A stretch of 64,000 bases of DNA from assembly GCF_003002825.1 (NCBI RefSeq), contig NZ_PVTE01000006.1:124001-188000 (forward strand), read 5' to 3'. The notes beneath the pieces were generated by a model. It was not told where the DNA came from. It ran no database searches and saw only the letters and a list, made by a program, of their open reading frames with translations. The stretch is from Spirosoma oryzae (GTDB lineage Bacteria > Bacteroidota > Bacteroidia > Cytophagales > Spirosomataceae). Positions 12,788-62,640 of the stretch are shown one piece after another (position 1 is the first letter of the stretch; every line of letters begins with the position of its first letter). Position numbers and translations under genes: made by a program.

Positions 12788-12882
12788 CGGTTTTCAGTTT
12801 ACGGTGCAGTTCCCCACGCGGTCAACAGCCCGAACTGTCGCCTAACAACTGCCGCAGGTTGAAAACCGTAAACTGAAAACCG
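12788..12882. repeat. 18-bp perfect inverted repeat, CGGTTTAC-family element
   Basis: Left arm 12788-12805 (CGGTTTTCAGTTTACGGT) pairs exactly with right arm 12865-12882; an inner GCAGTT/AACTGC pair extends the fold. The element begins 9 nt after the DUF1800 stop and ends 12 nt before the DUF1501 start, thus filling the gap. It contains no gene. Confidence 0.8.
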
Positions 12883-12894
12883 CAAACCGAAACT

Positions 12895-14103
12895 ATGAAC
12901 CGCCGTGATTTCCTCTTCCAGTCGGCCCTGACAACGGCCGGGTCGCTGCTGATTCCGAACTTCCTGAAAGCGTATGAACTGTCGGCCATGGGGCAACCCG
13001 TAGCGCCGTCGGGCAAGATTCTGGTGATCGTACAACTGTCCGGTGGCAACGACGGGCTGAATACCGTCGTGCCGTATCGAAACGACATCTACTACCGGGA
13101 GCGACCGACCATTGCCATTCCCACGGATAAAGTAGTACCCCTGACCGACGAAATTGGCCTGCACCCGGCCATGCACCCGCTGCGGGCACTGTACGACGAC
13201 GGTCTACTGACGGTTATCAACAATGTCGGCTACCCCAACCCCGATCGATCGCACTTCCGGTCAATGGACATCTGGCAAACCGGCAGCGATGCAAATCAAT
13301 ACAAAACCAGTGGCTGGGTTGGGCGGTATCTGGATGCGGCCTGTACCGGAACGGCGCGACAGCCGTTTCGTACCATCGAAGTCGATGATACGCTGAGTCT
13401 GGCCATGAAAGGGGAGTCGCTCAACGGTATCGCGTTGCTCGATCCGAAAAAGCTGTACAAGCAGACCCGCAGCAAACTGGTGACGGGGCTGAGCCACGAG
13501 CATCCCGACGACAACCAATCGGTAGCCTACCTGTACAAAACGCTGGCTGAAACCGTATCCACCGCCGATTACGTGTTCGACAAGACAGCGCAAAAGCCGT
13601 CGTCGGCCGGTACGACCTATCCCAATCACGAATTGGGTAACCGGCTGCATACCGTTTCCCAGTTGATTCAGTCCGGCATGGGTACGAGCGTGTATTACGT
13701 GTCGATTAGCGGATTCGATACGCATATCAATCAACCGGGGCAACAGGCTCGCTTGCTGGGGCAATATGCCGAAGCCGTCAGCGCATTCATGACCGATTTG
13801 AAAGCTGCCGGACGACAGAACGACGTGCTGCTGATGACGTTCTCGGAGTTTGGTCGGCGCGTCAAACAAAACGCCAGCAACGGTACTGACCACGGTACGG
13901 CCAGTAATGTGTTTTTGCTTGGTGGGGGACTGCCTGGGCGTGGGGTGTTGAACGAAGCCCCAAACCTCAGCAACCTGACCGATGGTGACCTGAACTACAC
14001 CGTCGACTTTCGGCAGATTTATGCCACGCTGCTCCGCGATTACCTGGGTGCCGACGATATGGCTGTGCTGGGACGCTCATTCGAGCCGCTGAAGCTGGTT
14101 TGA
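12895..14103 (+). CDS. DUF1501 domain-containing protein
   Basis: 402 residues. The N-terminus MNRRDFLFQSALTTAGSLL has a twin-Arg-like start typical of this family, suggesting Tat export. DUF1501 proteins resemble the alkaline phosphatase/sulfatase superfamily; the visible markers are VQLSGGNDGLNTVVPY, the SHFRSMDIWQTG segment, SGFDTHINQPGQQ and TFSEFGRRVKQNASNGTDHG. It is the regular partner of the upstream DUF1800 protein. Function remains unknown in the family; a role in envelope processing is a guess. Confidence 0.93.
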   Translation: MNRRDFLFQSALTTAGSLLIPNFLKAYELSAMGQPVAPSGKILVIVQLSGGNDGLNTVVPYRNDIYYRERPTIAIPTDKVVPLTDEIGLHPAMHPLRALYDDGLLTVINNVGYPNPDRSHFRSMDIWQTGSDANQYKTSGWVGRYLDAACTGTARQPFRTIEVDDTLSLAMKGESLNGIALLDPKKLYKQTRSKLVTGLSHEHPDDNQSVAYLYKTLAETVSTADYVFDKTAQKPSSAGTTYPNHELGNRLHTVSQLIQSGMGTSVYYVSISGFDTHINQPGQQARLLGQYAEAVSAFMTDLKAAGRQNDVLLMTFSEFGRRVKQNASNGTDHGTASNVFLLGGGLPGRGVLNEAPNLSNLTDGDLNYTVDFRQIYATLLRDYLGADDMAVLGRSFEPLKLV

Positions 14104-14104
14104 T

Positions 14105-14290
14105 TGATAGAAGAAAGAGGAGAGACGAAAGAGAAAAGATGTGAGGTGGAAGATAGATGACGAAAGAGGAAGGATGTAAGCAGAAAAATGATAGGAGCGG
14201 AAGTCCGCTCATCATTAGTTCTTCTCTGCGGTTTTCCGCTTTTGTTTTCCGTCTTTTCTCTTTCTTCGTACATCTTTCCTCTTTTGTCCA
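14105..14290. repeat. Long imperfect hairpin, GAAAGAGG/CCTCTTTC word family
   Basis: The left half is purine-rich (GAAGAAAGAGGAGAGACGAA and related words) and the right half is its pyrimidine-rich counterpart (TTTCTCTTTCTTCGTACATC, TTTCCTCTTTTG), around a core with GGAGCGGAAGTCCGCTC. It starts right after the DUF1501 stop. The fold is imperfect but spans about 185 bp. No coding content. Confidence 0.7.
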
Positions 14291-14370
14291 TATATAAAAA
14301 ATCAGTGTAAGCGGCCCGGAAATCTGCCTGAATCTACGTTATTTCGCAGACGGTCAAGTCCGTATTCACG

Positions 14371-14853
14371 ATGGTAGGTATTATTATGGGTAGCCTCTCC
14401 GACCGAAAAGTCATGCAGGAGGCCGCCGACATTCTGACCACGCTTGGTGTAGCCTGGGAAATGGACATTGTATCGGCGCACCGGACGCCGGAAAAAATGG
14501 TCGATTATGCGAAGGCCGCCCGCGATCGGGGGCTCAAGGTAATTGTAGCGGGTGCGGGTGGTGCGGCTCACTTGCCCGGTATGGTTGCATCGCTGACAAC
14601 ACTTCCCGTGATCGGGGTACCGGTGAAGTCCAGTAATTCAATCGACGGCTGGGACTCGGTACTGTCGATTCTGCAAATGCCGGGGGGCGTTCCGGTGGCA
14701 ACGATGGCGCTCGACGGAGCGCGTAACGCGGGTATTCTGGCGGCACAGATCGTCGGAACATTCGACGAACGGGTTGCCCGGAATCTGGCTACGTTCAAAG
14801 ACGAACTCAAGGAGAAAGTCGCCGATATGAGCCGTCAACTCACCGAATCGTAA
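14371..14853 (+). CDS. purE: 5-(carboxyamino)imidazole ribonucleotide mutase
   Basis: 160 residues, class I PurE length. It converts N5-CAIR to CAIR in de novo purine synthesis. The motifs are GIIMGSLSDRKVM at the N-terminus, SAHRTPEKM, AGAGGAAHLPGM and the GVPV...GWDSVLSILQMPGGVPVATMA segment. PurK is not next to it; the following gene encodes a LysM protein 16 bp away and may be co-transcribed. purM lies 4 kb downstream but is separate. Confidence 0.97.
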   Translation: MVGIIMGSLSDRKVMQEAADILTTLGVAWEMDIVSAHRTPEKMVDYAKAARDRGLKVIVAGAGGAAHLPGMVASLTTLPVIGVPVKSSNSIDGWDSVLSILQMPGGVPVATMALDGARNAGILAAQIVGTFDERVARNLATFKDELKEKVADMSRQLTES

Positions 14854-14869
14854 CGCATTGTCAACGCCA

Positions 14870-15684: not shown

Positions 15685-16010
15685 CTTTTACCCCTAAATC
15701 CCCCTCAGGGGATTAGGGGCGTTAAGTTCCTAAACTGACGTCGGCACTAGCCAAATTTCCTTCGGTTGAAGTACCTCCAGCCCCGAAACGTCGGCCCGGG
15801 CTAGAGGGGGTTAAACTCCCCAATAAACCACTCCCCTTCAGGGGGGCGGGGGCAGGGCTGTTAAGTTCTTAAGTTGGCGCTGTCGTTAGCCAAATTACCT
15901 TCGGTCAGCCCTACCCCCCGCCCCCTGAAGGGGGTGAAATTCATTGGCGGAATGCTCCCCCTTTAGGGGGCTGGGGGGTAGATGAACTAGAACCTAACAG
16001 CCCTGCCTTT
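15685..16010. repeat. Composite repeat island of CCCCTAAATCC / CCCCTGAAGGGG words
   Basis: This 399-bp gap has no gene. It contains short palindromes such as CCCCTAAATCCCCCTCAGGG paired with GGGGATTAGGGG, CTCCCCTTCAGGGGGG, CCCCCTGAAGGGGG and CCCCCTTTAGGGGG. A 46-nt direct repeat starting GTTAAGTTC and ending CCTTCGGT occurs at 15721-15766 and again at 15860-15905, containing TAGCCAAATT. Similar C4TnAG4 intergenic repeats are known across Bacteroidota; the island ends in a terminator. Confidence 0.75.
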
Positions 16011-16969: not shown

Positions 16970-17064
16970 TAACGGGTTTGCGGTTTACAGACTACGGTTG
17001 CCAGCGCGGGAAAACGACTCAGACTGGTGACGACAACTGAAAACCAAAAACCGTAAACCGAACT
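16970..17064. repeat. Imperfect CGGTTTAC-family hairpin element
   Basis: Left part TGCGGTTTACAGACTACGG and right part AAAACCAAAAACCGTAAACC are partly complementary (CGGTTTAC / GTAAACCG). It fills the space between two divergent genes and ends 1 nt before the ATG at 17066. Confidence 0.55.
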
Positions 17065-17065
17065 A

Positions 17066-32405: not shown

Positions 32406-32425
32406 CGTACTTTTGCGGACAGAAG

Positions 32426-32513
32426 TCGGTTTATAGATTTCAGTGTCCAGTTTTCGGTGAAAATCCATCAGGTTTCAGACGGGGATCACCGTAAACCGAA
32501 AACGGTAAACCGA
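32426..32513. repeat. CGGTTTAC-family hairpin element (imperfect)
   Basis: Left end GTCGGTTTATAGATTTC and inner TTTTCGGTGA pair with right end TCACCGTAAACCGAAAACGG and GGTAAACCGAC. It fills the gap before the ferredoxin reductase gene, ending 19 nt before its ATG. The word ACCGTAAACCG is identical to that in the 6933-7013 hairpin. Confidence 0.65.
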
Positions 32514-32532
32514 CAGAACAATAGAATAACTA

Positions 32533-33644: not shown

Positions 33645-33841
33645 TAGAGACCGGTGCGCCGGTGCGACGATCCTTCGCGTCTCATTTTATCCGGCAGGTC
33701 ATTTATCCGGCAAGCGTTCTCTTACTGGGTAGATTAGCTGGCGCGTGCTGAGCCGCAAAGGCCGGTTCGCGCTATGATTGTTAACTGTATGGTTGCGTCG
33801 ATAAAACCATCCGGTGAATGAGACGCAAAGTATTGCGTCTC
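33645..33841. repeat. GAGACGCAA-family repeat island and terminator of the M56 gene
   Basis: Contains GTAGAGACCGG...CGCGTCTCA at the left and a clean hairpin GAGACGCAA-AGTA-TTGCGTCTC at 33820-33841, whose last base is the first base of the M56 protease stop codon on the minus strand. ATCCGGCAG and TTTATCCGGCAAG are repeated within it. No gene between. Such GAGACGCAA hairpins recur in related genomes from memory (not checked). Confidence 0.65.
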
Positions 33842-35943
33842 TACTGTTTTGGCGGAGTTGGTATAACCGCTTTCCCCTTTATCGCCTTGGGTGGTGTTGC
33901 TGGTCGGGCGGGTGCTGCCGGATGTGCCTCGATAGCCGGTGTTGCTGGCCGTGCCGGTCTCATCGGACGTGGCTCGATGGCTGGTGGAGCAGGTGCACCG
34001 GGAACAACAACGCCATCAACGACACGGTATTTTTTTGCCGAACGACGAACTGGCTTGCTTGTTATAGCACGTGGCTTGTTCAAGTAGAGTGCCTCATTCG
34101 CCATCTCCATCGCCTTTTCAGCTTGTTGGTTAATATTTTCCGCGATTATACCCGACAGTTCGCCTATTTTCTCCGTGTAAGCATACGTGGGTTCCACCAA
34201 CTTATTTATCGAATCGGCGAGAATCTCCATACGTTGCTGATAGGGAGCGATTTGGTCCGCCATCTGCCCACCTAAATCACCCATTTGACCGCCCAGGTCA
34301 CCCATTTGGGTTCCTAGTGCATCCATTTGCCTTTCAAGCTGCTCCTGTTGCCGGAGCTTTTGCGCTAGTAGCGATTTGGCTTCTTTCGAGTTTTGGGCTG
34401 ACAGGCGATCAATGTCAGCCTGTAAGGGCTTTAGCTGACGGGCGAGTTTCATCTGCTTCGTAACCAGTAGCGACTGTTGCGCAACCAGTTTGGTCTGCTG
34501 CTCCTGTAAAGCCTGTACGTGTTTCTGATTGCTCGTGTTTTTCAGCGCCAGGTTCTCCATCTCTTTGCTTAGCCGATCAATCGCCGGTTGGCGTTCCGCC
34601 ATGATCCGGGTCAGTTCATTACTGAGTTGCTCAAGCTGACGCTGCGCCCGCTGTAGCTGGGATGTATCCTGCAAGGCACTTTTTGAACCATCTACGGTCC
34701 GAATAGTGATCCATTCGTTGCCCACCTTCACGGAATCGTGTACTTCCACAATAGGCTTTTCTGCTGGGTTATACGAAGCGACTGTTGGAACGGTATCCGG
34801 CGATAAGCGAATTTCAGGCGACGCAGCAGCTACAGATACGGCCGGAGAAACCGCTTCTATGGCTTGTTTCGGTGCGTCAATTTTTGTGTTGACAGTGACG
34901 TTCGGTTTTGGCGGCTGTGGTTTATCCTGCCGCTGAATGGCGTATACCGATGCGCTGACCAAAAACAGCGTCGCCAGCGTCAACCCGGCCAGACTGCGGT
35001 TCGATACCATCGAGCGAGTCGACAGGCCCAGTACCCGCTGAACCCGGTGCAGTAGTAACTGTCGCCGTCCTGCAAAGGCCATGGCCAGCGCGGGGGTACC
35101 TACCTGCTCCAGCCGCCGTTCTTCGATGCGGGCCAGTGCATTTGCCAGCGCACGGCCATTGTCGCCACAAACCTGTACGGCCATATCGTCGCAACAATGT
35201 TCACGCTCTTCCCGAACCCGCGCCGATAACCACCACAGAGCAGGGTGGAAGAAGTATAGTATTTCGACCACCGATTGCAGCAGGTTGACGGCGTAATCGT
35301 TGCGTTTGACGTGGGCCAGTTCGTGCGCCAGTACGGCTTCCAACTCGCGGGGACTTAGTCCCGTTGCCAGTCCGGCGGGGAGCAGTAACATGGGTTTCAG
35401 CACACCGATAACCATCGGACCGGTGACCCGCGCCGATTTCCGTACCCGCACTACTGTCCGAAGGTTTAGTACCGCCCGTAACCGGTCGATCATGGCCTGT
35501 TCGATCGGCAGGGGCGACCCAATTGCTGAACGACGTAGTTGACGCAGATGCAGCCAGCCACCGGCCAGACGTACACCAAACAGCGCTACGCCAATCAGGT
35601 ACAAGCAGACAAAATCGCTCAGGTGTGCTTCCAGAAAAAGCAGCGCCTGTTGTGGCCAGGGGAGGGGCCGGGCGCTGATCGACCAACGGAGGGGTAGGGC
35701 TGCTACCGTCGTGGCGATACGGCTTGGCTGATAATACCGAACAAACGTAGCTGCCGACACCAGCAGTTGCGCGAATAGCGTAAGTGTGCCGATTCGGTAG
35801 CGCAGCAAACTCGATCGATGCCGAAGCAAATGCAGCAGGATGGCCGTTGGTAAGACCAGAGCAAAACCCTGCCAGAGTGCGTGCAGGAGCGTCCAGCCCA
35901 GTGCGCGGGCTACCGGACTGTCGAGAAACTCAATCGTTATCAT
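33841..35943 (-). CDS. M56 family (BlaR1-like) membrane metallopeptidase
   Basis: 700 residues from ATG 35943; an upstream TTG (35949) is the alternative. The N-terminal 100 residues contain several hydrophobic segments. Zinc motif HELAH in EAVLAHELAHVKRNDYAV near residue 207 with the distal Glu in VREEREHCCDDMA. After one more helix (LAGLTLATLFLVSASVYAI) a periplasmic tail has a His-free coiled coil with heptads (LSNELTRIMAERQPAIDRLS, LEQLE-type and QMDALGTQMGDLGGQMGDL repeats) and a Pro/Ala-rich end. It lacks the penicillin-binding sensor domain of true BlaR1, so it senses another signal and probably cleaves the BlaI-type repressor coded just upstream. Confidence 0.92.
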   Translation of the reverse strand: MITIEFLDSPVARALGWTLLHALWQGFALVLPTAILLHLLRHRSSLLRYRIGTLTLFAQLLVSAATFVRYYQPSRIATTVAALPLRWSISARPLPWPQQALLFLEAHLSDFVCLYLIGVALFGVRLAGGWLHLRQLRRSAIGSPLPIEQAMIDRLRAVLNLRTVVRVRKSARVTGPMVIGVLKPMLLLPAGLATGLSPRELEAVLAHELAHVKRNDYAVNLLQSVVEILYFFHPALWWLSARVREEREHCCDDMAVQVCGDNGRALANALARIEERRLEQVGTPALAMAFAGRRQLLLHRVQRVLGLSTRSMVSNRSLAGLTLATLFLVSASVYAIQRQDKPQPPKPNVTVNTKIDAPKQAIEAVSPAVSVAAASPEIRLSPDTVPTVASYNPAEKPIVEVHDSVKVGNEWITIRTVDGSKSALQDTSQLQRAQRQLEQLSNELTRIMAERQPAIDRLSKEMENLALKNTSNQKHVQALQEQQTKLVAQQSLLVTKQMKLARQLKPLQADIDRLSAQNSKEAKSLLAQKLRQQEQLERQMDALGTQMGDLGGQMGDLGGQMADQIAPYQQRMEILADSINKLVEPTYAYTEKIGELSGIIAENINQQAEKAMEMANEALYLNKPRAITSKPVRRSAKKYRVVDGVVVPGAPAPPAIEPRPMRPARPATPAIEAHPAAPARPATPPKAIKGKAVIPTPPKQ

Positions 35944-50226: not shown

Positions 50227-50664
50227 TTATGTTCTTAAGCCCCGGAAAAACTTCGTCAACAAGGCCTGACTCTCGTCGGCCAGGATACCCGTTTCGATAC
50301 GGGTTTTGGGGTGAAGCAGCGGTGGGCTAATCCGGCTGTGTCCCCGTTTGGGATCTGGTGCGCCAATGACGAGACGACCCAGTTGGGCCCAGTAGAGCGC
50401 GCCTGCGCACATCACACAAGGTTCAAGTGTAACATACAAGGTACAATCGGTGAGGTATTTACCGCCGAGGTACTGGGCGGCTGCGGTTAGGGCAAGCATT
50501 TCAGCATGTGCTGTAACATCACCCAACTGCTCCGTCTGATTGCGCCCCTTGCCAATGATTCGATTGCGACTGACTACGACCGCACCGACGGGAATCTCGC
50601 CGTCGTCGGCGGCTTCCTCTGCCAGGCCCAGCGCAATTTCCATAAAGTATTCGTCGGGGAGCAT
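50227..50664 (-). CDS. tadA: tRNA-specific adenosine deaminase-type nucleoside deaminase
   Basis: 145 residues from ATG 50664 (frame opens earlier but only in repeat sequence). Zinc motifs HAEMLAL and PCVMCAGAL, with the catalytic Glu in HAE, are those of TadA, which edits A34 to inosine in tRNA-Arg. The C-terminal part (LLTKFFRGLR) also matches. A hairpin element fills the gap from this start to the stop of the Ig-like gene. Confidence 0.92.
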   Translation of the reverse strand: MLPDEYFMEIALGLAEEAADDGEIPVGAVVVSRNRIIGKGRNQTEQLGDVTAHAEMLALTAAAQYLGGKYLTDCTLYVTLEPCVMCAGALYWAQLGRLVIGAPDPKRGHSRISPPLLHPKTRIETGILADESQALLTKFFRGLRT

Positions 50665-50775
50665 GAAAGAAGATAGACAAAAGATAAAAGAAGAAAGATA
50701 GGAGAGGATAGACACAAGAGAAGAGACTTGCTACACCAGCGTCTTTCTTCTTTCGTCTATCCTCTTTCGTCTACC
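50665..50775. repeat. GAAAGAAG/CTTTCTTC word-family hairpin
   Basis: Left half repeats GAAAGAAGATAGACAAAAG-like words; right half carries GTCTTTCTTCTTTCGTCTAT and CCTCTTTCGTCTA. The halves are complementary in blocks (TAGAC/GTCTA, GAAAGA/TCTTTC). It starts next to the tadA ATG and stops 2 nt before the Ig-like gene's stop codon. Confidence 0.75.
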
Positions 50776-50777
50776 AG

Positions 50778-53700
50778 TTACTGTTTCAGGATTCGCCGGA
50801 CAAGCTGCCGGTCGCCAATCTGTATCCGAAGCAGATACGTACCAGCGGGCTGCTGATTGACATCCAGCGTTGTTTGCCGGGAGCGGGTCGTTTGATTGAG
50901 CACCGGCCGACCGCTGGCATCATGCAGGGTCAGTATGGCCGGATCGCGCAGCAGCGAAACGTCGATGTCGACCGTTAGCGTTGCACCAGTTGGAACGGGA
51001 TATATGTTGACGAGTGGGCCCAGCGATGGGTCTTCGACGCCCAGCACTTTCTGCACCGTAACAACGGCCGACCCCGATACGGTCGTGCCTACCCCGCAAT
51101 TGTTACTGACGCCTGTGAGTCGGTACGTGGTGGCGCGGGCCGGTAGAACCTCCAGCGTATATGGTGAACTGGCTGCAGTAACCGTATACGAACGCAGACT
51201 GTCGGCGTAGGTAGCTGTCCAGGGAGCTTCCCCACCAAATGTTAGCGTCAGCGTGGCGGGAGAGCCTTCATAAATCGACTGTGTACCGGTAAGTGTTGCT
51301 GTTGCCCGTGCTCGTACGGTCAGGATCGACGGGCTGTTACTGCCCGTGATGCCAACGCTGGGATTCGAACCTTTCACCCGAACGTAGTACTGTCCCGCCG
51401 TCAGCGTCAACGGAGTAACAGCAGTTACGACGCTACCGGTCGTGCCGTTGGGCGATACCCTGATCTTGCGACTCGTATCAGCTACGCTGACCAGTTCGGC
51501 CGTAAACAGGTTGCCTGCTGTGAATTGTCCCGTCGTTGTAAACGGCACGGCAAATGAACTGCCCGCGCAAACCGTCGACGTTTGCAGGGCGCTGGTAGTA
51601 ATGACCGGAACGCGCACGGTGATGGTAGCGGTTGCTGGGTTACCGGGCAGACCAACCCCACAACTGTTGGCAACCGAAACGATCTGATAAGTGGTGTTGC
51701 CGCGCGGTAGCACGTAAATCGTCGTGTCGTTCGTTCGGCTGATACCGCTATATCCGTCTGTCAGCGTGTAGCTGAAGGGTGGTGCACCGGTAAAACTCAG
51801 CTTAACGGGGGCCAGCGTGCCCAGATTAACTTCGCCAGCACCGTTTAATGCCAGCGTCGGTGCTACGTTGACGACAACCCGGATGGTCGCCCGTGAACTG
51901 TAGCAACCATTCGAACCGATCTGGTACACGTAGAAGGGATCACCGCCTGCCACTACGTTGCTGTTGAGTGTTGAGGGGGTGGGGGCTTCCACCGATGTAT
52001 TATTATAGGGATTAATCCAGCGCAGGCTGGCACCAGTGGCCGCTGTAGCCTGAAGGGGGGCGGCTGTCGTGTTGATGCAGTACGTGACCAGGGGTGTTGT
52101 GACGGTCGGGGCAGGAGTACTGTTGACGGCGACCTGTAGTGTAGCCCGGCCACCTTCGCAGCCATTTACCGTTTGACTAACCTGATAGGTGTAGGTGCCG
52201 ACCTGTGTAACCGGGGGCGTAGGGGCCGACTGAAACGGATTGCCGTCGGTATTGTACCAGCGCAGGTTATCGCCCGACGCGGTCAGGGGACCAACGTTCT
52301 GCGCAGGCTGATCCTGCGTAGGTTGGCAGTACGACAGATTGGCAACACCGGGCTGACCGGGTAGCGGCTTGATGGTCACGGTCAGCGCTGCTTTCTGCTG
52401 ACTTTCACAGCCATCCACGGTTTGCGTGGCCTGATAGGTTTGTGTACCGACCGCGCCCGTTGGTGGTGTGGGCGCACCGGAGAGTGCTGTCCCGGCTGCA
52501 TCGTACCATTTGATGGCGTTGCCGATCGCAGTTAGTTGCTGCGATTTTTCGTTATTACAATACGCGACGGCCGTTACGGTTGGAATCTCTGGGGTTGGCT
52601 TTACAGTCACGGCAATAGCCGATCGACTTGCTGATTCGCACCCATCTAGCGTTTGGCTGACGTAGTAGTTGGTTGTACCCACTGTTGACGATGAAAGAGT
52701 GGGTGTTACAGTTGTACTGGTACCGCCTGTAGCGCTGGCACCATACCAGAGCAGGGTGGCACCAGTGACCGGTGTCGCTGTTAAGCCGGGTAAAGCAGTG
52801 GCATTCTGGCAGAAGGACAACGCGTTGATTGCATCGGGCTGTGCGGGCGTTGTCTTTACCGTAACCGTTATACCAGCCCGGTCACTGACACAGCCATTCG
52901 TCGTTTGCGTGACATAGTAGGTTGTTGGCCCGGTACTGCTCGTTAACGGTACGGTAGCGGTTGAGTTGCCAGTGCTGCCAGTCTGGTTTGCACCATACCA
53001 GAGCAGTGCAGTTCCGGTCGCTGACAGCGGCTGAGCCGATGCACCCTGACAGTAGGTCGGGCCGGTAGCCGCGACGGTAGGCATGGCCGGAACTGCATTG
53101 ACCGTCACAGTCAGTGTTGCTTTACTGCTTTCGCAATCGTTGACCGTCTGACTAACGGAAAACGATGTTGCGCCAGTGGCCGTCACCGATGGGGTTGGTG
53201 CCGTCGTTGACGGGGTACTGCTGTTCGGGCTATACCAGTTGATCGTTCCCGTCACGCCCGACGCGGTCAGTGCGTTTGCCGACCGATTCTGACAGAGCGA
53301 CAGATTCGTGACGCTGGGGGTAGCCGGCGTAGGTTTGACCGTTACGCTGATCGATGCCCGTGGACTTTCACAGTTCCCAACCGTCTGACTGACATAATAC
53401 GTGCCTGAGGATGTGGTGCTGGGGACGGTAGCTGTAGACGATGAGGTTCCCCCCGTCGAATTGGTACCATACCAGTTTAGTGTGCCACCCGTTGATGCCG
53501 TAGCGGATAACGGAGCAGCGGTCTGACCGGGGCAGTAACTGGCCGCCGGCGAAACGACGCTGGGTGCTGACGGAGAAAGAATGGTAACCGAAATGGCCGT
53601 ACGGCTACTCTCGCACTTACCCCGCGCCTGACTGACATAATAGGTTGCTGAATTCTGGTTGTCGGGTATAGGAGCTGTCGACGAAAAAGTACCTCCGCTG

Positions 53701-54476
53701 GCAGTCGTTCCGTACCATCGTAGCGTGGCACCAGCAGCGGCTGTTGCTGTGAGGGGGGACAAGGTCGCCCCCCGGCAGAAAGACAACGATAACGACGATG
53801 GGATACTGGGCGCAGGAGGTGTACCATTTACGGTAACGGTAAGTGGCGCACGGGCGCTTTCACAGGTTCCCAACATCTGACTGACGTAGTACTGCAACGT
53901 GTCAGCTTGTTTCGTATCCGGAGTAGGTGCAATGGACGAAGGCGTTCCCCCTGTAGCAGTGGTATACCAGTTTAACGTAGCGCCATTAACCGGCGAAGCT
54001 GATAGGGGTACTGCTGTCTCGCCTATGCAATAAGCTACGGGAAGGCTGGTAACGCCGGGCGCGCTGGGGGTATTCGAAATCGTGAGTCCCGCTGTGTTGC
54101 TACTCGTCTTCACCGGGGCGGTTGACGAAATCACGCGCACCTGATAACCAGTGCCAGCGGCTACTCCACTCAAAATCGTTGCTGAAATGGTCCGTGTCGT
54201 AGCTGTAGTCGCGCTGGATGCGGCTGTCAGCGTACCGATGTTCGTTGCCGAGGAACTAAACGCGCCCGATGCGTCCGACAGTTGTGCCGTAAACGTATTG
54301 GTTGAGCCAAACGAACCTGTCGTGGTAAATGGAACAGATATGACCGTGGCTTTACCAGTACAGACGGCAGCGGGTGAGAGTGTTCCAACCGTGATCGTCT
54401 GTGCCAGTCCGCTTAGCGGCAGCCCTAAACTACACGATACCAGAACGAGGAAACAGTGAAATAAAAATCGTTGCAT
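50778..54476 (-). CDS. Giant cell-surface protein with nine tandem Ig-like repeats and T9SS tail
   Basis: 1232 residues. Signal peptide (LPLSGLAQ). Residues about 30-135 are an N-terminal domain; residues about 137-870 hold nine repeats of roughly 80 residues, each with a YCxG...L-A-tg-tLxWYg-GGT core and YYVSQTxxGCESxRAxItVTV end with two cysteines. Two further Ig-like/SprB-like domains follow, and a C-terminal type A sorting signal (VNIYPVPTGATLTVDIDVSL) ends the protein. It is likely a T9SS-exported adhesin or filament-type surface protein. Confidence 0.93.
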   Translation of the reverse strand: MQRFLFHCFLVLVSCSLGLPLSGLAQTITVGTLSPAAVCTGKATVISVPFTTTGSFGSTNTFTAQLSDASGAFSSSATNIGTLTAASSATTATTRTISATILSGVAAGTGYQVRVISSTAPVKTSSNTAGLTISNTPSAPGVTSLPVAYCIGETAVPLSASPVNGATLNWYTTATGGTPSSIAPTPDTKQADTLQYYVSQMLGTCESARAPLTVTVNGTPPAPSIPSSLSLSFCRGATLSPLTATAAAGATLRWYGTTASGGTFSSTAPIPDNQNSATYYVSQARGKCESSRTAISVTILSPSAPSVVSPAASYCPGQTAAPLSATASTGGTLNWYGTNSTGGTSSSTATVPSTTSSGTYYVSQTVGNCESPRASISVTVKPTPATPSVTNLSLCQNRSANALTASGVTGTINWYSPNSSTPSTTAPTPSVTATGATSFSVSQTVNDCESSKATLTVTVNAVPAMPTVAATGPTYCQGASAQPLSATGTALLWYGANQTGSTGNSTATVPLTSSTGPTTYYVTQTTNGCVSDRAGITVTVKTTPAQPDAINALSFCQNATALPGLTATPVTGATLLWYGASATGGTSTTVTPTLSSSTVGTTNYYVSQTLDGCESASRSAIAVTVKPTPEIPTVTAVAYCNNEKSQQLTAIGNAIKWYDAAGTALSGAPTPPTGAVGTQTYQATQTVDGCESQQKAALTVTIKPLPGQPGVANLSYCQPTQDQPAQNVGPLTASGDNLRWYNTDGNPFQSAPTPPVTQVGTYTYQVSQTVNGCEGGRATLQVAVNSTPAPTVTTPLVTYCINTTAAPLQATAATGASLRWINPYNNTSVEAPTPSTLNSNVVAGGDPFYVYQIGSNGCYSSRATIRVVVNVAPTLALNGAGEVNLGTLAPVKLSFTGAPPFSYTLTDGYSGISRTNDTTIYVLPRGNTTYQIVSVANSCGVGLPGNPATATITVRVPVITTSALQTSTVCAGSSFAVPFTTTGQFTAGNLFTAELVSVADTSRKIRVSPNGTTGSVVTAVTPLTLTAGQYYVRVKGSNPSVGITGSNSPSILTVRARATATLTGTQSIYEGSPATLTLTFGGEAPWTATYADSLRSYTVTAASSPYTLEVLPARATTYRLTGVSNNCGVGTTVSGSAVVTVQKVLGVEDPSLGPLVNIYPVPTGATLTVDIDVSLLRDPAILTLHDASGRPVLNQTTRSRQTTLDVNQQPAGTYLLRIQIGDRQLVRRILKQ
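51866..54068 (-). repeat. Coding tandem repeat array (nine Ig-like units)
   Basis: Each unit is about 240 bp and shares protein-level pattern but limited DNA identity, so the copies are old. Boundaries are approximate, inferred from the recurring WYG and GCES motifs. Confidence 0.75.
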
Positions 54477-57690: not shown

Positions 57691-57923
57691 GGTACTCAAA
57701 AAAGCAAACGGTACGAAAAGATAAGCTCAGCAGACAAGGTCGATTGGCTAAACCATAAAATTAGCCAACGTCTATTTTAAAGCATAGGCGCTGTTAGAAT
57801 TGTTTAATTTTTTACCGGTATAATAACGATCAGCGCAAGATTTAGTGCTGTAAAGTGCAGTTTACCCGGACTATTTTTCGTTAGCTGCACAAAACAGGCC
57901 AACACACATGTTCCGATCGACGT

Positions 57924-58219
57924 ATGAATAGTCGCGTGATTCTGAGCTTGTTGATGGTTAGTATCGGCCTGGCGTAAGCGCAGTAGCTGAGCCAATCGTA
58001 CCGCATAGGCGTCGATACGTGGGATAAAAAACTGTGCCATTTGTGGCGGTAGCGAAGCTGAAGAAAACGCCCGTTATTGGCTTGCTGACTACGCGATTGA
58101 GCGAAGAATACGGTATGACTTACGTAGGCTACACCAGTTTAGACCCGGAAGGGGGTGACCGTTATGCGGAAGGGGGGCAATGGGGTAATGTGGTAATGTG
58201 GTACTGTGCTGATCAGTAG
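57924..58219 (+). pseudogene. Decayed secreted-protein remnant in a 724-bp gene-poor stretch
   Basis: From ATG 57924 the frame gives a neat signal peptide (MNSRVILSLLMVSIGLA) but then reads TAA-GCG-CAG-TAG before LSQSYRIGVDTWDKKLCHLW; both stops differ from Gln codons by one C-to-T change. A second frame carries on from 58034 (TPVIGLLTTRLSEEYGMTYV, GYTSLDPEGGDRYAEGG). The pattern suggests an inactivated small exported protein. No family recognised; weak claim. Confidence 0.3.
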
Positions 58220-58386
58220 GGGGTTCGGCGTGAACGGGTAGAGAGGAAGTTACTGGCAGTTGGCAATCAGCACGTACATAATCTGCACGGAAGCCTGTTC
58301 GGACGGGTTCATGAAGAAAACCCAGAGGTAGGTAAGGGGGGAAAAGCCACCGAGCACATCCACTCGCGGCCCTGAGGCATCAAACG

Positions 58387-58414
58387 AAAAAAGACGATGG
58401 GTACTAGCTACCCA
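58387..58414 (-). terminator. Terminator of the small secreted protein gene
   Basis: On the minus strand TGGGTA and TACCCA form a stem, followed by TCGTC and a T-run. It begins 10 bp after the stop of the gene at 58424. Confidence 0.6.
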
Positions 58415-58423
58415 GGCGCTTGC

Positions 58424-58681
58424 TCAATAAGGGTTAGGTAGCAGGCTCGTTATAGCACGTGCACATCCTTTTGTCAGCAGGGCCGACCCTTTTTCGACTA
58501 GCGTAGACGCATAGGTTGGTTTAACGGCCTGCGCCTTTACATCTTTGGCCGACAGTTTGTTCGCCGATAGTTTCGCGTGCATCCGTTTGCGGGCGGCAAA
58601 CACATTGTGCGGGTGCCCCATACTGAAAGCCTGTCCGGCCAGGCTCGTTGTCAGAAATCCGATAAGCAAAAGCCGTTTCAT
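58424..58681 (-). CDS. Small secreted protein of unknown function
   Basis: 85 residues. Clear signal peptide MKRLLLIGFLTTSLAGQAFS. The mature 65 residues are basic and Ala-rich (HNVFAARKRMHAKLSANKLS, AKDVKAQAVKPTYAS). No family recognised. A consensus promoter 25 bp upstream and a terminator 10 bp downstream support it as a real single-gene unit. Confidence 0.65.
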   Translation of the reverse strand: MKRLLLIGFLTTSLAGQAFSMGHPHNVFAARKRMHAKLSANKLSAKDVKAQAVKPTYASTLVEKGSALLTKGCARAITSLLPNPY

Positions 58682-58705
58682 AGGTGTGTCGATTTAAGGA
58701 CAGAA

Positions 58706-58713
58706 CAAAGGTA
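58706..58713 (-). promoter_or_regulatory. TAnnTTTG -7 promoter element
   Basis: TACCTTTG on the minus strand, 25 bp ahead of the ATG at 58681. Confidence 0.55.
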
Positions 58714-58798
58714 TAGGTTTTAATCAATACCTTGCAATACAAAGTACTAAAATTTTCTAATTTTTTCTACAAGTGTACAGAAGGGGGTTGACGGAACT

Positions 58799-58862
58799 CG
58801 GCTTATAGTTTACGGTAGATAGCACACGTTTGCCGCTACTAACCACCGTAAACTATAAACCG
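58799..58862. repeat. CGGTTTAC-family hairpin element
   Basis: CGGCTTATAGTTTACGGT (58799-58816) pairs with ACCGTAAACTATAAACCG (58845-58862) with one mismatch that allows G-U pairing; the loop is 28 nt. It lies 12 nt after the stop of the T9SS-tail gene on the minus strand. Confidence 0.75.
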
Positions 58863-58873
58863 AATACTGCAAA

Positions 58874-59683
58874 CTAATCAACTACGACCCGCTTCACGGC
58901 ACCGTCTTCGTTCTGCGTGACGGTTACGAAGTAAGTTCCTTCGGCTTTGCGCCCCAGATTGATCTGACCGATAAACTCACCCGAGAAATCGCTGATGTCC
59001 TTCCGGGCTACTTCCTTGCCTTTGGTATTGGTAACCACAATGCTTACGTTCCCCTTAGCGGGTGCCGTGAAGCGGATGTTGAGCTGATCTTTATCGGGAT
59101 TGTTTGGGTAAACATCCAGGCCCCGGACTGAAGAAGGCTTCGCTTCCATGTTCCGTGCCCAGGTCTCAAACGGTCGGGCTAGCTGCCGGTCCCAGTCCGA
59201 CGGGAATTGCAGTTGCAGCCGATTTAACTGCCTGCCGATTGAGTCGGCTCCGCGCCGGAGGTCGTACTGCCAGGTCGAGCCGTTGCCGGGCGTTGACCGT
59301 CTGTCGCGCCACACATACACGTCGTTTCGTCGGCGCTGGGCTCCGGTGGTACTACGCTCACGTGTGGTCGTGCGATTGCCGGTGCCGTCGTCCACAATGA
59401 CGGTAAGCTGTTGATCATCGCCGGATTTCCGACGGGCTGCCTTCAATGAATCAACCAGTTTGGTAACCAGCCGATCGCGCTCGGGGTCTTGCAGGCCATC
59501 GACGCGATACGTACGGTTGGTTTCGCGGATGTCGTTACCGTTGCGTTCGATGATCTGAACATGGATTTCATCGGTCGTCGTTGCCTGCTTTTTCGCTTTT
59601 TGCGCGTAAGCGTTACCGGTGAGGGTTGCCGCAGCCAGCAGCATCAGGCCGAACCAGCGGGCGGGGAGTTGTTGTTTTTTCAT
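58874..59683 (-). CDS. Secreted protein with T9SS type A sorting domain
   Basis: 269 residues. Signal peptide (WFGLMLLAAATLTGNAYAQ). The middle is polar and Arg-rich (GDDQQLTVIVDDGTGNRTTT, RERSTTGAQRRRNDVYVWR) without a known fold. The last 80 residues are a sorting domain (LDVYPNNPDKDQLNIRFTAP, GTYFVTVTQNEDGAVKRVVV). Divergent from the histidine kinase gene, whose system might regulate it (inference from position only). Confidence 0.85.
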   Translation of the reverse strand: MKKQQLPARWFGLMLLAAATLTGNAYAQKAKKQATTTDEIHVQIIERNGNDIRETNRTYRVDGLQDPERDRLVTKLVDSLKAARRKSGDDQQLTVIVDDGTGNRTTTRERSTTGAQRRRNDVYVWRDRRSTPGNGSTWQYDLRRGADSIGRQLNRLQLQFPSDWDRQLARPFETWARNMEAKPSSVRGLDVYPNNPDKDQLNIRFTAPAKGNVSIVVTNTKGKEVARKDISDFSGEFIGQINLGRKAEGTYFVTVTQNEDGAVKRVVVD

Positions 59684-59861
59684 TAGTACTGCGTGTTTGG
59701 TAAGCGGTGCGTGAAGGCCCGAACCAGCTGGCTTATCGGGCTGTTAAAGTTTGTTAACAGGTCAGTTTGTGGCGGTTAAGCGGCTTACTTTTACCTGAGC
59801 CACCCCGTCTGTTTGCTATAGATGCCGTAAAACAGGGAAGGTTGCACCCGGAGTCAAAAAA

Positions 59862-61745
59862 ATGTCAAGACAACGCATACGCTGGATCGTCGCGCTGATG
59901 GCCGTCGGACTGCTGGGCCTGATTGGTCTGCAATCGTACTGGATCAGCAGCGCACTCGTACTCCAGAAAAAACAGTTCGATTACAAAGTCACGGACGCTT
60001 TGCAGGAGGTCGTGCGTACGCTCGAACGGCAGGAAATCCTGTACCTGACCCGGCAGCGTGTACAGTCGCGCGAAAAGCAGGAGCGGCTGATGGCGATTTC
60101 GCGCCGAAAGGAATCGACGCAAACAGCGGAAACGGCAGTACAACCGGCTCGTCAGCCAGCGACCGATGCCACGTTGACGAAAAAGCAGACGGCTGATCGC
60201 CAGATAGAACGGCTGGCCGGTGGTCGGCATCGCACCGTACCTAACGCCGGCGGTATGGGCGGTATGGTAGTTCAATCCGATGTTCTGCACCCGATGGTGC
60301 AACCCCTGACACCCGAACAGGCGGCTGTCGTGGAGGCCTTTTTTCGGCAGCAGGACGAACTGATCGCTGTAGGAGACTGGCAAACGCAGATCGCCCAGCA
60401 GCAGCAGTTTAGCCAGTGGCTCGACGGTCAGATCCTGACGGAGATGGTGCATATCAACGAACAGGTGGCCGAAAAAAAACGGCACAAAGATTCCGTCAAT
60501 CGATACAAACGGTTGGTAGCGCAACGCGAACGACAGCGGTCGGCAGAAAAGTCAGTTGCCGATACCACTCGTGCCGTCAGCCGGCCAGCCAGCATGAGCA
60601 GCAGCCAGGCTACCGAACAGACGCGCTGGATAAAGGACGTGTTGAACGGACTGATGTTATCGGATCGGCCTATCGAAGACCGGGTTAATCGGCTGGTACT
60701 CGATACGTTGCTGCGGCAGACCCTACAGGACCGGGGTATCAGCATTCCGTTTGCCTTCGGCGTACGAACGAAGACACGCCCCGCTTTCCTGTTTACGTCG
60801 GCCGGAATGGACACGCAGCATTTCAACGAGAGTGGCTACCGGGCGGTGCTGTTTCCAAACAATATGAACGAAACCGGCAATTACCTGTACGTTTACTTCC
60901 CCACGCAGCGGGCTTTCATTCTGAATCAGCTGGGCTTTACGTTGGGTGCGTCGGTGCTGCTGATTGCCGTAATTCTGGCTTGCTTTTACATCGCCATCAA
61001 CACCATCGTGCAACAGAAAAAGCTGGCCGACATCAAGAACGACTTTATCAATAATATGACCCACGAGTTCAAAACGCCGATTTCGACGATCTCGCTGGCG
61101 GCCGAAATGGCGCAGGAGCAGGTGGGCCGGTCGGGGGGGGACGATGCGGCCGGATTGAACGAGCGGGTTGGGCGGTACATGGGCATCATTCGCGACGAAA
61201 CCCGGCGGCTGGGGTCGCACGTCGAGAAGGTGTTGCAAATGGCCTTGCTCGACCGGGGCGAAATCAGATTGAAGCTATCGTCGGTCAACGTGCATGACGT
61301 GATCGAAAAGGTGCTCAACAACATCGGTATCCAGATCGAACAGCGTGGCGGAGAGGTCGACCTGTCGTTCGACGCCGATCAGGAAGTGATCGAAGCCGAC
61401 GAGCTACACGTTACGAACATTCTGTATAATCTGCTCGACAACGCGCTGAAATATTCGCCCAACACGCCCGTCATCGGGATCAAAACGGCCAGTCTGCCCG
61501 AAGGCGTCAGCATCACCGTATCCGATCAGGGGCTGGGCATGACCAGGGAGCAGGTCAACCGGATTTTCGAGAAATTCTACCGCGTCCCGACGGGTAACCG
61601 CCACGACGTGAAAGGCTTCGGGCTAGGGTTGAGCTATGTCAAAAAAATGGTCGAGGAGCACCACGGCCAGATCCTGGTCGACAGCCAGCCCGGCAAAGGC
61701 AGCACCTTCGAAGTGATCTTACCATATAAAATTGCGAATGAGTGA
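59862..61745 (+). CDS. Sensor histidine kinase (HisKA/HATPase)
   Basis: 627 residues. First transmembrane helix WIVALMAVGLLGLIGLQSYW near the N-terminus, then about 330 residues of mostly helical, Gln-rich periplasmic domain (EEQ-type, low similarity), second helix LGASVLLIAVILACFYIAI. Phospho-accepting His401 in NNMTHEFKTPISTI. HATPase boxes: N-box LYNLLDNALKYSP, G1 SDQGLGM, G2 GFGLGLSYVKKM. It pairs with the OmpR-type regulator downstream. Its last codons and TGA stop are inside the left arm of a repeat element. Confidence 0.95.
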   Translation: MSRQRIRWIVALMAVGLLGLIGLQSYWISSALVLQKKQFDYKVTDALQEVVRTLERQEILYLTRQRVQSREKQERLMAISRRKESTQTAETAVQPARQPATDATLTKKQTADRQIERLAGGRHRTVPNAGGMGGMVVQSDVLHPMVQPLTPEQAAVVEAFFRQQDELIAVGDWQTQIAQQQQFSQWLDGQILTEMVHINEQVAEKKRHKDSVNRYKRLVAQRERQRSAEKSVADTTRAVSRPASMSSSQATEQTRWIKDVLNGLMLSDRPIEDRVNRLVLDTLLRQTLQDRGISIPFAFGVRTKTRPAFLFTSAGMDTQHFNESGYRAVLFPNNMNETGNYLYVYFPTQRAFILNQLGFTLGASVLLIAVILACFYIAINTIVQQKKLADIKNDFINNMTHEFKTPISTISLAAEMAQEQVGRSGGDDAAGLNERVGRYMGIIRDETRRLGSHVEKVLQMALLDRGEIRLKLSSVNVHDVIEKVLNNIGIQIEQRGGEVDLSFDADQEVIEADELHVTNILYNLLDNALKYSPNTPVIGIKTASLPEGVSITVSDQGLGMTREQVNRIFEKFYRVPTGNRHDVKGFGLGLSYVKKMVEEHHGQILVDSQPGKGSTFEVILPYKIANE

Positions 61746-61814
61746 ATGAGCGATTGAGCGAATAGTTTACGGTGGCCCTATTCACTCAATCACTCAATCA
61801 CTCAATCACTCATT
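61736..61814. repeat. CACTCAAT-family hairpin element overlapping a stop codon
   Basis: Left AATGAGTGAATGAGCGATTG and right CAATCACTCAATCACTCATT are complementary with few mismatches; the centre TAGTTTACGGTGGCC has a CGGTTTAC-family word. The left arm includes the kinase's last codons and stop; the right arm ends 5 nt before the regulator's ATG. Confidence 0.8.
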
Positions 61815-61819
61815 AAGCT

Positions 61820-62503
61820 ATGCCTACCATTCTCCTTGTTGAAGACGACCCCAACCTGGGCCAGCTGGTGCAGGAATTTTTGACGCTCAAAGGCTTTACG
61901 ACCGATCGGGTGACCGACGGCAATCAGGGGCTACAGCACTTCATGGACGGCCAGTACGATCTGTGCATTTTCGACGTGATGATGCCCAAGAAAGACGGGT
62001 TCACGCTGGCGAAGGAAGTCCGAATGGCCAATCGCGATGTGCCCATTATTTTCCTGACCGCCAAATCGATGCAGGAAGATACGATTCAGGGGTTCCGCGC
62101 CGGTGCCGACGATTACATTACCAAGCCGTTCAGCATGGAGGAACTGCTGCTCCGCATTCAGGCTATTCTTCGGCGTTACCAGCGATCAGGCGATGCCATC
62201 GGCGACCCCTCGATTTATCAGATCGGTAGTTTATCGTTCGACTATCCCCGCCAGTTGCTGACTCACAATGGGGTGGCTCAGAAACTAACCAGCAAGGAAT
62301 CGGAGTTACTAAAATTACTGGCGCAGAACCTCAATCAACCCGTTAGCCGTAGTTTTGCGCTGAAAATGGTCTGGGGCGACGATTCGTATTTCAACGCCCG
62401 GAGCATGGACGTGTACATTACCAAACTCCGCAAGTACCTCAAAGAGGACCCATCGGTTCAATTGGTCAACGTACACGGCGAAGGATTCAAACTTATCGTT
62501 TAG
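61820..62503 (+). CDS. OmpR/PhoB family response regulator
   Basis: 227 residues. Receiver domain with acidic pair EDD and phospho-acceptor Asp52 in CIFDVMMPKKDG, then TAKSMQED and FRAGADDYITKPFS. C-terminal winged helix of OmpR type (LTSKESELLKLLAQN, YFNARSMDVYITKLRKYLKE). Partner of the upstream kinase. Target genes unknown. Confidence 0.96.
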   Translation: MPTILLVEDDPNLGQLVQEFLTLKGFTTDRVTDGNQGLQHFMDGQYDLCIFDVMMPKKDGFTLAKEVRMANRDVPIIFLTAKSMQEDTIQGFRAGADDYITKPFSMEELLLRIQAILRRYQRSGDAIGDPSIYQIGSLSFDYPRQLLTHNGVAQKLTSKESELLKLLAQNLNQPVSRSFALKMVWGDDSYFNARSMDVYITKLRKYLKEDPSVQLVNVHGEGFKLIV

Positions 62504-62507
62504 ACGT

Positions 62508-62640
62508 GATTGAGTTGTTGAATGATTGAGTGATAGAATGAATAGTCCGTGCCTGGTGGCCGTCGGCGCAGTGAATTAGCTGGCGCAACTGACTTTTCAA
62601 TTGCTGACTCATTCAATCACTCCATCACTCAATCAGTCAA
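62508..62640. repeat. CACTCAAT-family hairpin element before hemB
   Basis: Left TGATTGAGTTGTTGAATGAT and TGAGTGATAGAATGAATAG pair in blocks with right ATTCAATCACTCCATCACTC and AATCAGTCAACT. The core is GTGAATTAGCTGGCGCAAC. It fills the gap between the regulator's stop and the hemB start, ending 2 nt before the ATG. Confidence 0.7.

What the first reader, a model, noticed from the sequence alone, without database searches (positions are those of the whole stretch)
12788..62640. Intergenic gaps filled stop-to-start by long hairpins made of short words
Seen directly: the gaps at 12780-12894, 17040-17065, 32406-32532, 50665-50777, 61746-61819 and 62504-62642 are occupied almost fully by inverted repeats. 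Arms are built from reiterated words and begin within about 10 nt after a stop codon and end 2-20 nt before the next start codon. In this position a hairpin would sequester the translation start region and could couple, attenuate or terminate. Different gaps use different words (CGGTTTAC, CACTCAAT, GAAAGAAG), so the placement is conserved while the sequence is not. That is unlike a single transposed REP-type family. I know of no description that fits (not searched).
Basis: partly seen in the sequence, partly recalled or inferred. Interest (0 to 1): 0.75.

Follow-up and report, generated by a model that had tools for sequence, protein, structure and literature searches.

The report
Stop-anchored hairpins of repeated words
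Just after the ends of many genes, this Spirosoma-like bacterium carries long DNA hairpins whose arms repeat a loose 7- or 8-letter word; related species often have a hairpin at the same spot spelled in other words, so position tends to be inherited while spelling changes fast.

Summary
Of the six cited gaps, four hold strong hairpins (12780, 50665, 61746, 62504), 32406 a decayed one, 17040 only one arm. Stronger ones were missed (6925-7016, 58782-58873).

In 1.0 Mb of this Spirosoma-like genome such hairpins are common and intergenic. Four core families have arms with a 7- or 8-nt period. They begin just after stop codons, not just before start codons. Their 5' arm is richer in G than C almost without exception.

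Species of the genus differ in their words. Orthologous gaps often keep a hairpin while the words change. Core hairpins rarely share loops, unlike the true GTAG-REP family of the same genome.

Core stem mismatches show no G·U preference and arms tend to change together. I therefore favour a DNA-level process (slippage plus template switching in the transcribed stretch after a stop) over translational control. The only clear spacer inversion lies in a non-word palindrome, and how words spread between loci is unexplained.

Closest published case: GGGAATC heptamer arrays of Xanthomonas/Nostoc, with similar placement and, as I read it, polarity. New here: many word families, 8-nt words, species dialects, word turnover at fixed positions.

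The parts
6933..7013 (.). F1 (GTTTACGG-type, 7-nt words) hairpin, 31-nt perfect arms, 19-nt loop, convergent gap 6925-7016
   Evidence: fold z -12.4; G018 has a 27-nt perfect hairpin with shifted words in the same gap
12782..12888 (.). F1 hairpin between DUF1800 and DUF1501 genes (tandem); begins 2 nt after the stop, ends 6 nt before the start
   Evidence: orthologous gap in 80 loci
14109..14288 (.). F3 (GAAAGAG-type, 7-nt words) hairpin(s) after the DUF1501 gene, long loop
   Evidence: same family in G018; not folded
   Evidence: z -1.68; below the detector's threshold
32425..32514 (.). decayed F1 hairpin, 27-nt arms 74% complementary
   Evidence: z -2.32
50665..50772 (.). F3 hairpin between the minus-strand genes 50778-54476 (upstream) and 50227-50664 (downstream)
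   Evidence: G018 has a different palindrome in this gap
58787..58874 (.). F1 hairpin after the minus-strand gene 58874-59683
   Evidence: F1 also in G018 and G025
61736..61814 (.). F2 (GAATGAGT-type, 8-nt words) hairpin; its 5' arm overlaps the stop codon of 59898-61745; loop holds an F1-like piece (TTTACGGTGG)
   Evidence: hairpin at score >=11 in 24 of 35 genus genomes, 22 of them F2-like by my reading
62507..62641 (.). F2 hairpin filling the gap between a response-regulator gene and the ALAD (hemB-type) gene
   Evidence: hairpin at score >=11 in 12 of 35 genus genomes, with several word families
11328..12779 (+). DUF1800 gene upstream of the 12782 hairpin
   Evidence: PF08811
12895..14103 (+). 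DUF1501 gene downstream of the 12782 hairpin
   Evidence: PF07394
61820..62503 (+). response-regulator gene between two F2 hairpins
   Evidence: PF00072, PF00486
62643..63614 (+). delta-aminolevulinic acid dehydratase gene after the 62507 hairpin
   Evidence: PF00490

Best explanation
These are iterated-word hairpins. A degenerate 7- or 8-nt word is repeated along a G-rich, C-poor 5' arm and mirrored in the 3' arm, in the transcribed but ribosome-free stretch right after a stop codon. SHOWN by calls: word periodicity, stop anchoring, scarcity in divergent gaps, arm polarity, species-specific words, shared positions with changing words, joint change of the arms above chance, rarely shared loops, no RNA-specific pair conservation. 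INFERRED: words multiply by replication slippage; the arms are kept matched by polymerase template switching between them (known to homogenise arms and invert spacers), so pairing survives while the words drift. The stretch after a stop is favoured because it is transcribed, untranslated and the least harmful place; transcription may itself promote the switching. The RNA stem-loop may well affect mRNA 3' ends, but that looks like a consequence and not what preserves the sequence. NOT EXPLAINED: how words spread between loci so that a species has a dialect, and why the 5' arm is the G-rich one.
For: Periodicity at 7 or 8 nt: 69 of 133 own arms against 5.6 in shuffled arms. Core families begin within 20 nt of the stop in 60 of 65 tandem cases; with >=60 nt free, 13 of 17 near the stop and 1 of 17 near the start. 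Polarity 67 of 67 own. No G.U bias in core stems, 60 vs 68. Among stem pairs changed on both sides between own and G018, 43 of 65 still pair, about 1/3 expected by chance (each pair counted in both directions). At C6:47339 the 22-nt loop is identical while three pairs changed on both sides and both arms have a matched extension. Both arms differ in length together at one G027/G010 gap. Loops rarely shared between loci. Template switching is documented to homogenise arms and invert spacers (PMC8604942, abstract) and to create and maintain stems (PMC8794818, abstract and start of introduction); in yeast such events need high transcription (PMC3820800, abstract).
Against: Single changes outnumber double ones (113 vs 65). 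In G021 and G001 each arm was homogenised on its own. The one clear spacer inversion (G027/G010, 20 nt, 95%) is in a non-periodic palindrome; a second flagged case is weak. Most orthologous loops look unrelated (own-G018 20 of 22), so history is hard to follow. Local processes do not explain genome-wide dialects. Weak selection on RNA pairing in long stems would also give no G.U bias.
Confidence: 0.42

Rival explanations
1. RNA-level element: an intercistronic or 3'-UTR stem-loop kept by selection for attenuation, termination or protection of the upstream mRNA; any hairpin will do, so words are free to change.
For: Placement right after stops and scarcity in divergent gaps (5 of 115 hairpins, 103 of 492 gaps); positions shared between species; a different hairpin recurs at a gap that lost homology more often than at gaps without one (9 of 23 vs 12 of 140, p 0.0005; only the five clear cases, p 0.035); arms compensate.
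Against: No G.U preference in core stems while terminator-like hairpins show one. T-runs of >=4 at the 3' end in 16 of 155 tandem loop>8 hairpins against 19 of 55 terminator-like ones. In 34 of 65 core tandem cases both flanks are <=20 nt, leaving little room for a promoter, so full termination is unlikely. Hairpins are absent in some relatives. RNA selection gives no reason for words.
Confidence: 0.22
2. Miniature mobile elements: hairpins copied in trans by an unknown transposase with a preference for gene 3' ends, then scrambled by mutation.
For: Species-specific amplification (285 F1 sites own, 0 in five relatives); presence/absence between close relatives; other palindrome families in the same genome behave so: GTAG-REP hairpins flank the only Y1 transposase found and share loops.
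Against: Loops are shared by only 5 of 71 core hairpins. No transposase linked to core words was found; only the Y1 family was searched. Copying alone does not explain matched but locus-specific word orders.
Confidence: 0.2
3. Binding or uptake words: the 7-8-mers are sites for a DNA/RNA-binding protein or for DNA uptake (as Neisseria uptake sequences, whose inverted pairs act as terminators and differ between species; recalled), and dialects follow the protein's specificity.
For: Dialects differ sharply between species; words are reiterated; polarity is fixed.
Against: Words are concentrated in hairpins: GTTTACGG 3414 per Mb in hairpins, 288 in other intergenic, 65 in coding DNA, whereas uptake sequences are also spread through coding DNA (recalled). 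Several unrelated words per genome would need several factors.
Confidence: 0.05

Closest known systems
GGGAATC / GGGGA(C/T)T heptamer repeats of Xanthomonas and Nostoc (Rehm et al. 2015, PMC4692102)
   Same: Heptamer words with variants, mostly intergenic, close to the 5' neighbour (28 nt on average against 160 nt), rare between divergent genes, 70 and 75 inverted pairs in two Xanthomonas genomes, G-rich strand on the coding strand within 50 bp of stops and on the non-coding strand within 50 bp of starts (the polarity seen here, my reading), 83% kept in the same gene context with varying length.
   Different: One word family per genome with runs of G that fold into quadruplexes; no 8-nt words, dialects or replacement of one word by another at a position reported in the parts I read; inverted pairs are a subset.
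REP/REPIN elements with RAYT, and TIRtrons (Di Nocera et al. 2013, PMC3733652)
   Same: Extragenic palindromes at many loci; one family here, GTAGCCTGGAC..., is of this kind and flanks a Y1 transposase gene.
   Different: Core word families lack the GTAG tag, a linked Y1 transposase and shared loops; REP stems are mostly 6-9 bp there.
Template-switch-maintained hairpins (PMC8794818, PMC8604942; abstracts read)
   Same: Arm homogenisation and multi-base compensatory change; spacer inversion (here seen clearly once, in a non-word palindrome).
   Different: Described for rRNA genes and yeast coding DNA; no word reiteration, 3'-end placement or dialects in the abstracts.
Inverted repeats after stop codons in bacteria (PMC13155455; passages read)
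   Same: Enrichment of perfect inverted repeats downstream of stop codons, read there as rho-independent termination.
   Different: Those peak 50-80 bp after the stop with 4-5 nt spacers; the ones here begin within about 20 nt, have long loops and few T-runs.
TAACTGA heptamer direct repeats of Beggiatoaceae, Cyanobacteria and some Bacteroidetes (PMC4679880; abstract and section 12 read)
   Same: Intergenic heptamer reiteration, patchy across phyla.
   Different: Direct repeats, mostly just before start codons; 169 direct sets against one indirect.

Membership tests
REP / REPIN (GTAG-tagged, RAYT-associated) | linked Y1 (RAYT-type) transposase gene | tested here: not met
   PF01797 search of the own genome gave one gene; it is flanked by GTAGCC hairpins, not by core words
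REP / REPIN (GTAG-tagged, RAYT-associated) | element copied as a unit, with arms and loop | tested here: not met
   shared loops in 5 of 71 core hairpins against 10 of 13 GTAG-REP
Heptamer inverted pairs of the Xanthomonas type | tandem heptamers in inverted pairs near the upstream stop, rare in divergent gaps, G-rich strand toward the loop | tested here: met
   F1 and F3 (period 7); placement; polarity
Heptamer inverted pairs of the Xanthomonas type | quadruplex-forming runs of three or more G | tested here: not met
   words such as GTTTACG, GAAAGAG, GAATGAGT, GTTGTAAA hold no GGG (arms printed)
Intrinsic (rho-independent) terminator | stem followed by a T-run | tested here: not met
   T-run >=4 in 16 of 155 tandem loop>8 hairpins, against 19 of 55 terminator-like ones
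Intrinsic (rho-independent) terminator | ends transcripts in the cell | not testable with these tools
   needs term-seq
DNA uptake sequence | words also enriched outside hairpins, in coding DNA | tested here: not met
Template-switch hairpin | matched change of both arms | tested here: met
   43 of 65 double changes still pair, but 113 single changes
Template-switch hairpin | spacer inversion | tested here: inconclusive
   one clear case, in a non-word palindrome; none clear in core hairpins
Known structured RNA family (Rfam 15) | match at gathering score | tested here: not met
   only one tRNA in the window

The most novel reading that the evidence does not exclude
A general bacterial class, seen here across Bacteroidota and joined by the Xanthomonas/Nostoc heptamers: stop-anchored hairpins built from a species-specific 7- or 8-nt word with a G-rich 5' arm, generated and rewritten in place by a transcription-linked process (nascent RNA freed of ribosomes after the stop, RNA-DNA hybrid on the G-skewed arm, slippage and template switching), with words exchanged between loci so that each species acquires a genome-wide dialect. 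The exchange would be a new kind of dispersed concerted evolution, possibly through reiterative, telomerase-like synthesis of the G-rich word.
Probability: 0.2. Interest if true: 0.85.

Novelty: new variant of a known kind. Interest (0 to 1): 0.64.

Why it matters
If the sampled 1.0 Mb is typical (59 periodic hairpins), the genome holds about 390 of them. They offer a natural experiment in how long hairpins are created, kept matched and rewritten, with 36 genomes of one genus in which to follow positions. The arm polarity and the 7/8-nt word length, common to unrelated words and, as I read PMC4692102, to Xanthomonas and Nostoc, are unexplained and testable. The case also warns that conserved pairing with compensatory changes need not mean RNA-level selection.

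Tried and rejected
Stop codons in all frames: 7- and 8-nt periods would put stops in all three frames, but stop triplets in core arms are 233 against 213 in shuffles; only F2 is enriched (92 vs 62.8). Rejected as a general rule.

Uptake sequence: words are not enriched in coding DNA relative to hairpins.

Text search of papers for six repeat words, some recalled by me as dispersed repeats: one hit, a PCR primer in a Bacteroides fragilis paper, uninformative.

Intrastrand triplex motif (PMC4666352; abstract and section 15 read): its search used 6-15 nt stems and 1-6 nt loops, a different object.

Loop sharing as a sign of transposition: found for GTAG-REP and some non-periodic families. Three F1 hairpins (C1:16695, C1:20169, C11:164740) and two F10 hairpins do share loop pieces; not followed.

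Literature: searches (open-access library only; only the first 8-20 listed papers seen where more matched) showed no description of 7/8-nt word hairpins in Bacteroidota. That is not proof that none exists. PMC4060949 and PMC12306157 were seen as passages only.

Limits: genes come from my own hexamer caller; family names and membership come from my own regular expressions or my reading of printed sequences. Detector thresholds differ: 15 and the densities of 76; 14 in 29, 42, 53, 66, 71 and for fetched loci in 54 and 76; 13 in 39, 52, 69, 70 and for own/G018 arms in 54, 59, 76; 12 in 26 and 48; 11 in 46. In one search only alignments with >=0.6 identity over the hairpin were counted, and each pair in both directions, so the p value is too small. 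The sets 'other genus' and 'G027+G010' overlap by two short stretches. In one search, 4 of the 9 'non-homologous' rows are dialect variants or the same family picked at different arms; they were dropped for the strict count, and of its five rows only two involve a core or 7-nt word. G026 is missing (35 of 36 genomes), because its best match was a paralogue.

Full report
Where it is. The window is G000:C6:124001-188000 of a 6.57 Mb genome in 75 contigs. The closest named relatives by the DUF1501 protein are Spirosoma species (77-80% identity). Thirty-six genomes of its genus, itself included, were searched. G018 (median reciprocal-best protein identity 91%) and G025 (86-89% DNA identity over long matches) are near.

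Observation. Of the six gaps named, 12780-12894, 50665-50777, 61746-61819 and 62504-62642 hold strong hairpins, 32406-32532 a decayed one, and 17040-17065 a single arm. Two of four control gaps also fold better than shuffles. Stronger hairpins were missed: 6933-7013 has 31-nt perfect arms in a convergent gap. A detector of ungapped inverted arms found 83 in 464 kb, 12 of them in the window, all non-coding, and none in two shuffled copies.

What the arms are. Family names are mine (regular expressions). Identity of an arm with itself is 0.68 at lag 7 and 0.73 at lag 14 for F1 (GTTTACGG), 0.69 and 0.71 for F3 (GAAAGAG), 0.75 and 0.77 at lags 8 and 16 for F2 (GAATGAGT), 0.68 and 0.73 for F10 (GTTGTAAA). 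No other family in the genome exceeds 0.49 at any lag tested. Without using families, 69 of 133 own arms of >=18 nt are periodic, 40 at 7 and 23 at 8, against 5.6 when arm letters are shuffled; G018 20 of 35 (null 2.1), other genus members 28 of 40 (null 3.1), and 694 kb of loci across Bacteroidota 18 of 50 (null 2.2), mostly with other words. Terminator-like hairpins (loop <=8) give 8 of 78 (null 4.8).

Polarity. In periodic hairpins the 5' arm has more G than C in 67 of 67 own, 19 of 19 G018, 27 of 28 other genus members, 12 of 13 in G027+G010, and 14 of 17 across the phylum (2 opposite, 1 tie). Terminator-like hairpins split 51 to 56 with 10 ties; non-periodic long-loop hairpins without GTAG-REP lean the same way more weakly, 59 to 33 with 4 ties. 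A hairpin reads the same on both strands, so this is a rule about the apex, not about the gene strand. In Xanthomonas and Nostoc the G-rich heptamer strand lies mostly on the coding strand within 50 bp of stops and on the non-coding strand within 50 bp of starts (PMC4692102 section 13); I read this as the same polarity.

Placement. In 862 kb, hairpins with loops >8 nt lie in tandem (89), convergent (21) and divergent (5) gaps, while gaps of at least 60 nt number 317, 72 and 103 (Fisher p 5e-6). Core families (F1, F2, F3, F10) number 65 tandem, 7 convergent and 3 divergent. They begin within 20 nt of the upstream stop in 60 of 65 tandem cases (median 6 nt). With at least 60 nt of free space, 13 of 17 are within 20 nt of the stop and 1 of 17 within 20 nt of the start; for all loop>8 hairpins these are 27 and 3 of 50. 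The anchor is the stop codon; 'stop-to-start' arises because many gaps are little more than the hairpin (both flanks <=20 nt in 34 of 65).

Evolution of single gaps. Upstream of the ALAD gene (62504-62642), 12 of 35 genus genomes have a hairpin at score >=11: F2 (own, G018, G025), F10 (G024, G008, G012), F1 (G030, G011, G017), and F12, a GTGGAGTA word (G022, G010, G015). Many of the other 23 show remnants or other sequence; G007, G027 and G002 have a gap of only 1-6 nt (families by my reading). The gap before 61820 has a hairpin in 24 of 35 genomes, 22 of them F2-like with a different run of words in each. Between DUF1800 and DUF1501, 77 of 80 phylum loci have the two genes adjacent; 32 gaps are under 45 nt, and 15 of the 45 longer ones hold a hairpin at score >=12 (shuffle expectation 0.0), with words that differ by genus. 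Larkinella rosea has a 162-nt gap with a hairpin, Larkinella sp. C7 a 13-nt gap.

Evolution over many gaps. Own vs G018, tandem gaps of at least 45 nt: both have a hairpin in 17, one only in 12, none in 67 (Fisher p 8e-10). Of the eight own F1 gaps in that comparison, G018 has a shifted dialect (GTTTAAGG, GGTCTATGG) with good arms in four, the same words in two and no hairpin in two. At C6:47339 the 22-nt loop is identical while three stem pairs changed on both sides and both arms have a matched extension. Over all alignments with >=0.6 identity there are 43 pair-to-pair doubles, 22 non-pairing doubles and 113 single changes (both directions counted). G027 vs G010 (median 97% protein identity): tandem both 5, one only 8, none 42; convergent both 4, one only 2, none 5. 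They show a gap where an AATGAAT-word hairpin faces a hairpin of another family, a gap where both arms differ in length together, gain or loss before the ALAD gene, and a spacer in opposite orientations between nearly unchanged arms (20 nt, 95% as reverse complement); that last palindrome is not a word hairpin. A hairpin without arm homology appears at the same gap in 9 of 23 turnover cases against 12 of 140 gaps without one (p 0.0005); counting only five clear cases, p is 0.035.

Dialects. F1-pattern sites per genome: 285 own, 91 G025, 85 G008, 73 G018, 72 G022, 0 in G012, G019, G023, G028 and G034; reversed-pattern control 0-1. F12: G022 96, G032 88, G003 57, G010 32, G015 30, G007 26, G027 14, otherwise 0-1; control 0-2. 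F2 (GAAAGAG form): G021 259, G014 238, G001 220, 50 own, 0 in G024 and G034; control 0. F10: G018 60, own 40, G012 36, G016 29, none in 16 of 36; control 0-1.

DNA or RNA. In transcript orientation, mismatches in core stems are G.U 60 and A.C 68, in terminator-like hairpins 29 and 15 (p 0.049). If RNA pairing were what is preserved, G.U should prevail, though long stems may tolerate either. With the joint arm changes this points to DNA-level upkeep. Template switching is documented to homogenise arms and invert spacers (PMC8604942 abstract) and to create and maintain stems (PMC8794818 abstract and start of introduction); in yeast such events were seen only under high transcription (PMC3820800 abstract). 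Against a complete account: single changes are common, in G021/G001 each arm was homogenised alone, most loops are unrelated between orthologues, no clear spacer inversion was found in a core hairpin, and local processes do not spread a word across the genome.

Mobile element or not. The one gene found by a Y1-transposase search (C40:29440) lies between two GTAGCC hairpins. That GTAG-REP family shares loops in 10 of 13 elements, core word hairpins in 5 of 71 (p 3e-7). So the genome holds true REPs and, separately, the word hairpins.

Known or new. The Xanthomonas/Nostoc heptamers (PMC4692102) share heptamer words, stop-side placement, avoidance of divergent gaps, apparent polarity, and (in Xanthomonas) inverted pairs and persistence at the same genes. 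New here, as far as my searches went, are several word families per genome, 8-nt words, species dialects, replacement of words at fixed positions, and the numerical polarity rule over unrelated words. I call it a new variant of a known kind.

Noticed in passing
window 1552-1745: Two tandem copies (97-nt unit) of a TGATT-word palindrome; the family recurs in the genome and in G018 and shares loop pieces between loci, so it behaves like a dispersed element.
   Followed up: partly
window 15833-16007: Cluster of C-rich palindromes (CCCCTTCAGGGG type) that G018 lacks: gap 399 nt against 67 nt.
   Followed up: partly
G000:C40:29440-29679 (L163): The only Y1-transposase match of the genome, with a GTAGCC hairpin on each side: a REPtron-like unit in a Bacteroidota genome.
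   Followed up: partly
L184-L203 (G027 vs G010): A palindrome (ACTTGTCTGGGCCAAGC...) whose 20-nt spacer is inverted between two close species while the arms stay nearly unchanged.
   Followed up: partly
window 61736-61814: The loop of this F2 hairpin holds TTTACGGTGG, an F1-like piece, as if one word family had replaced another.
   Followed up: no
window 33893-33986: A 45-nt tandem repeat (2.1 copies) inside the minus-strand gene 33841-35943.
   Followed up: no
window 50778-54476: Large minus-strand protein with eight Ig_7 stretches and a Por_Secre_tail (type IX secretion) domain.
   Followed up: no
window 57691-58873: About 1.2 kb with hardly any coding signal between two minus-strand genes; possible gene remnants.
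   Followed up: no
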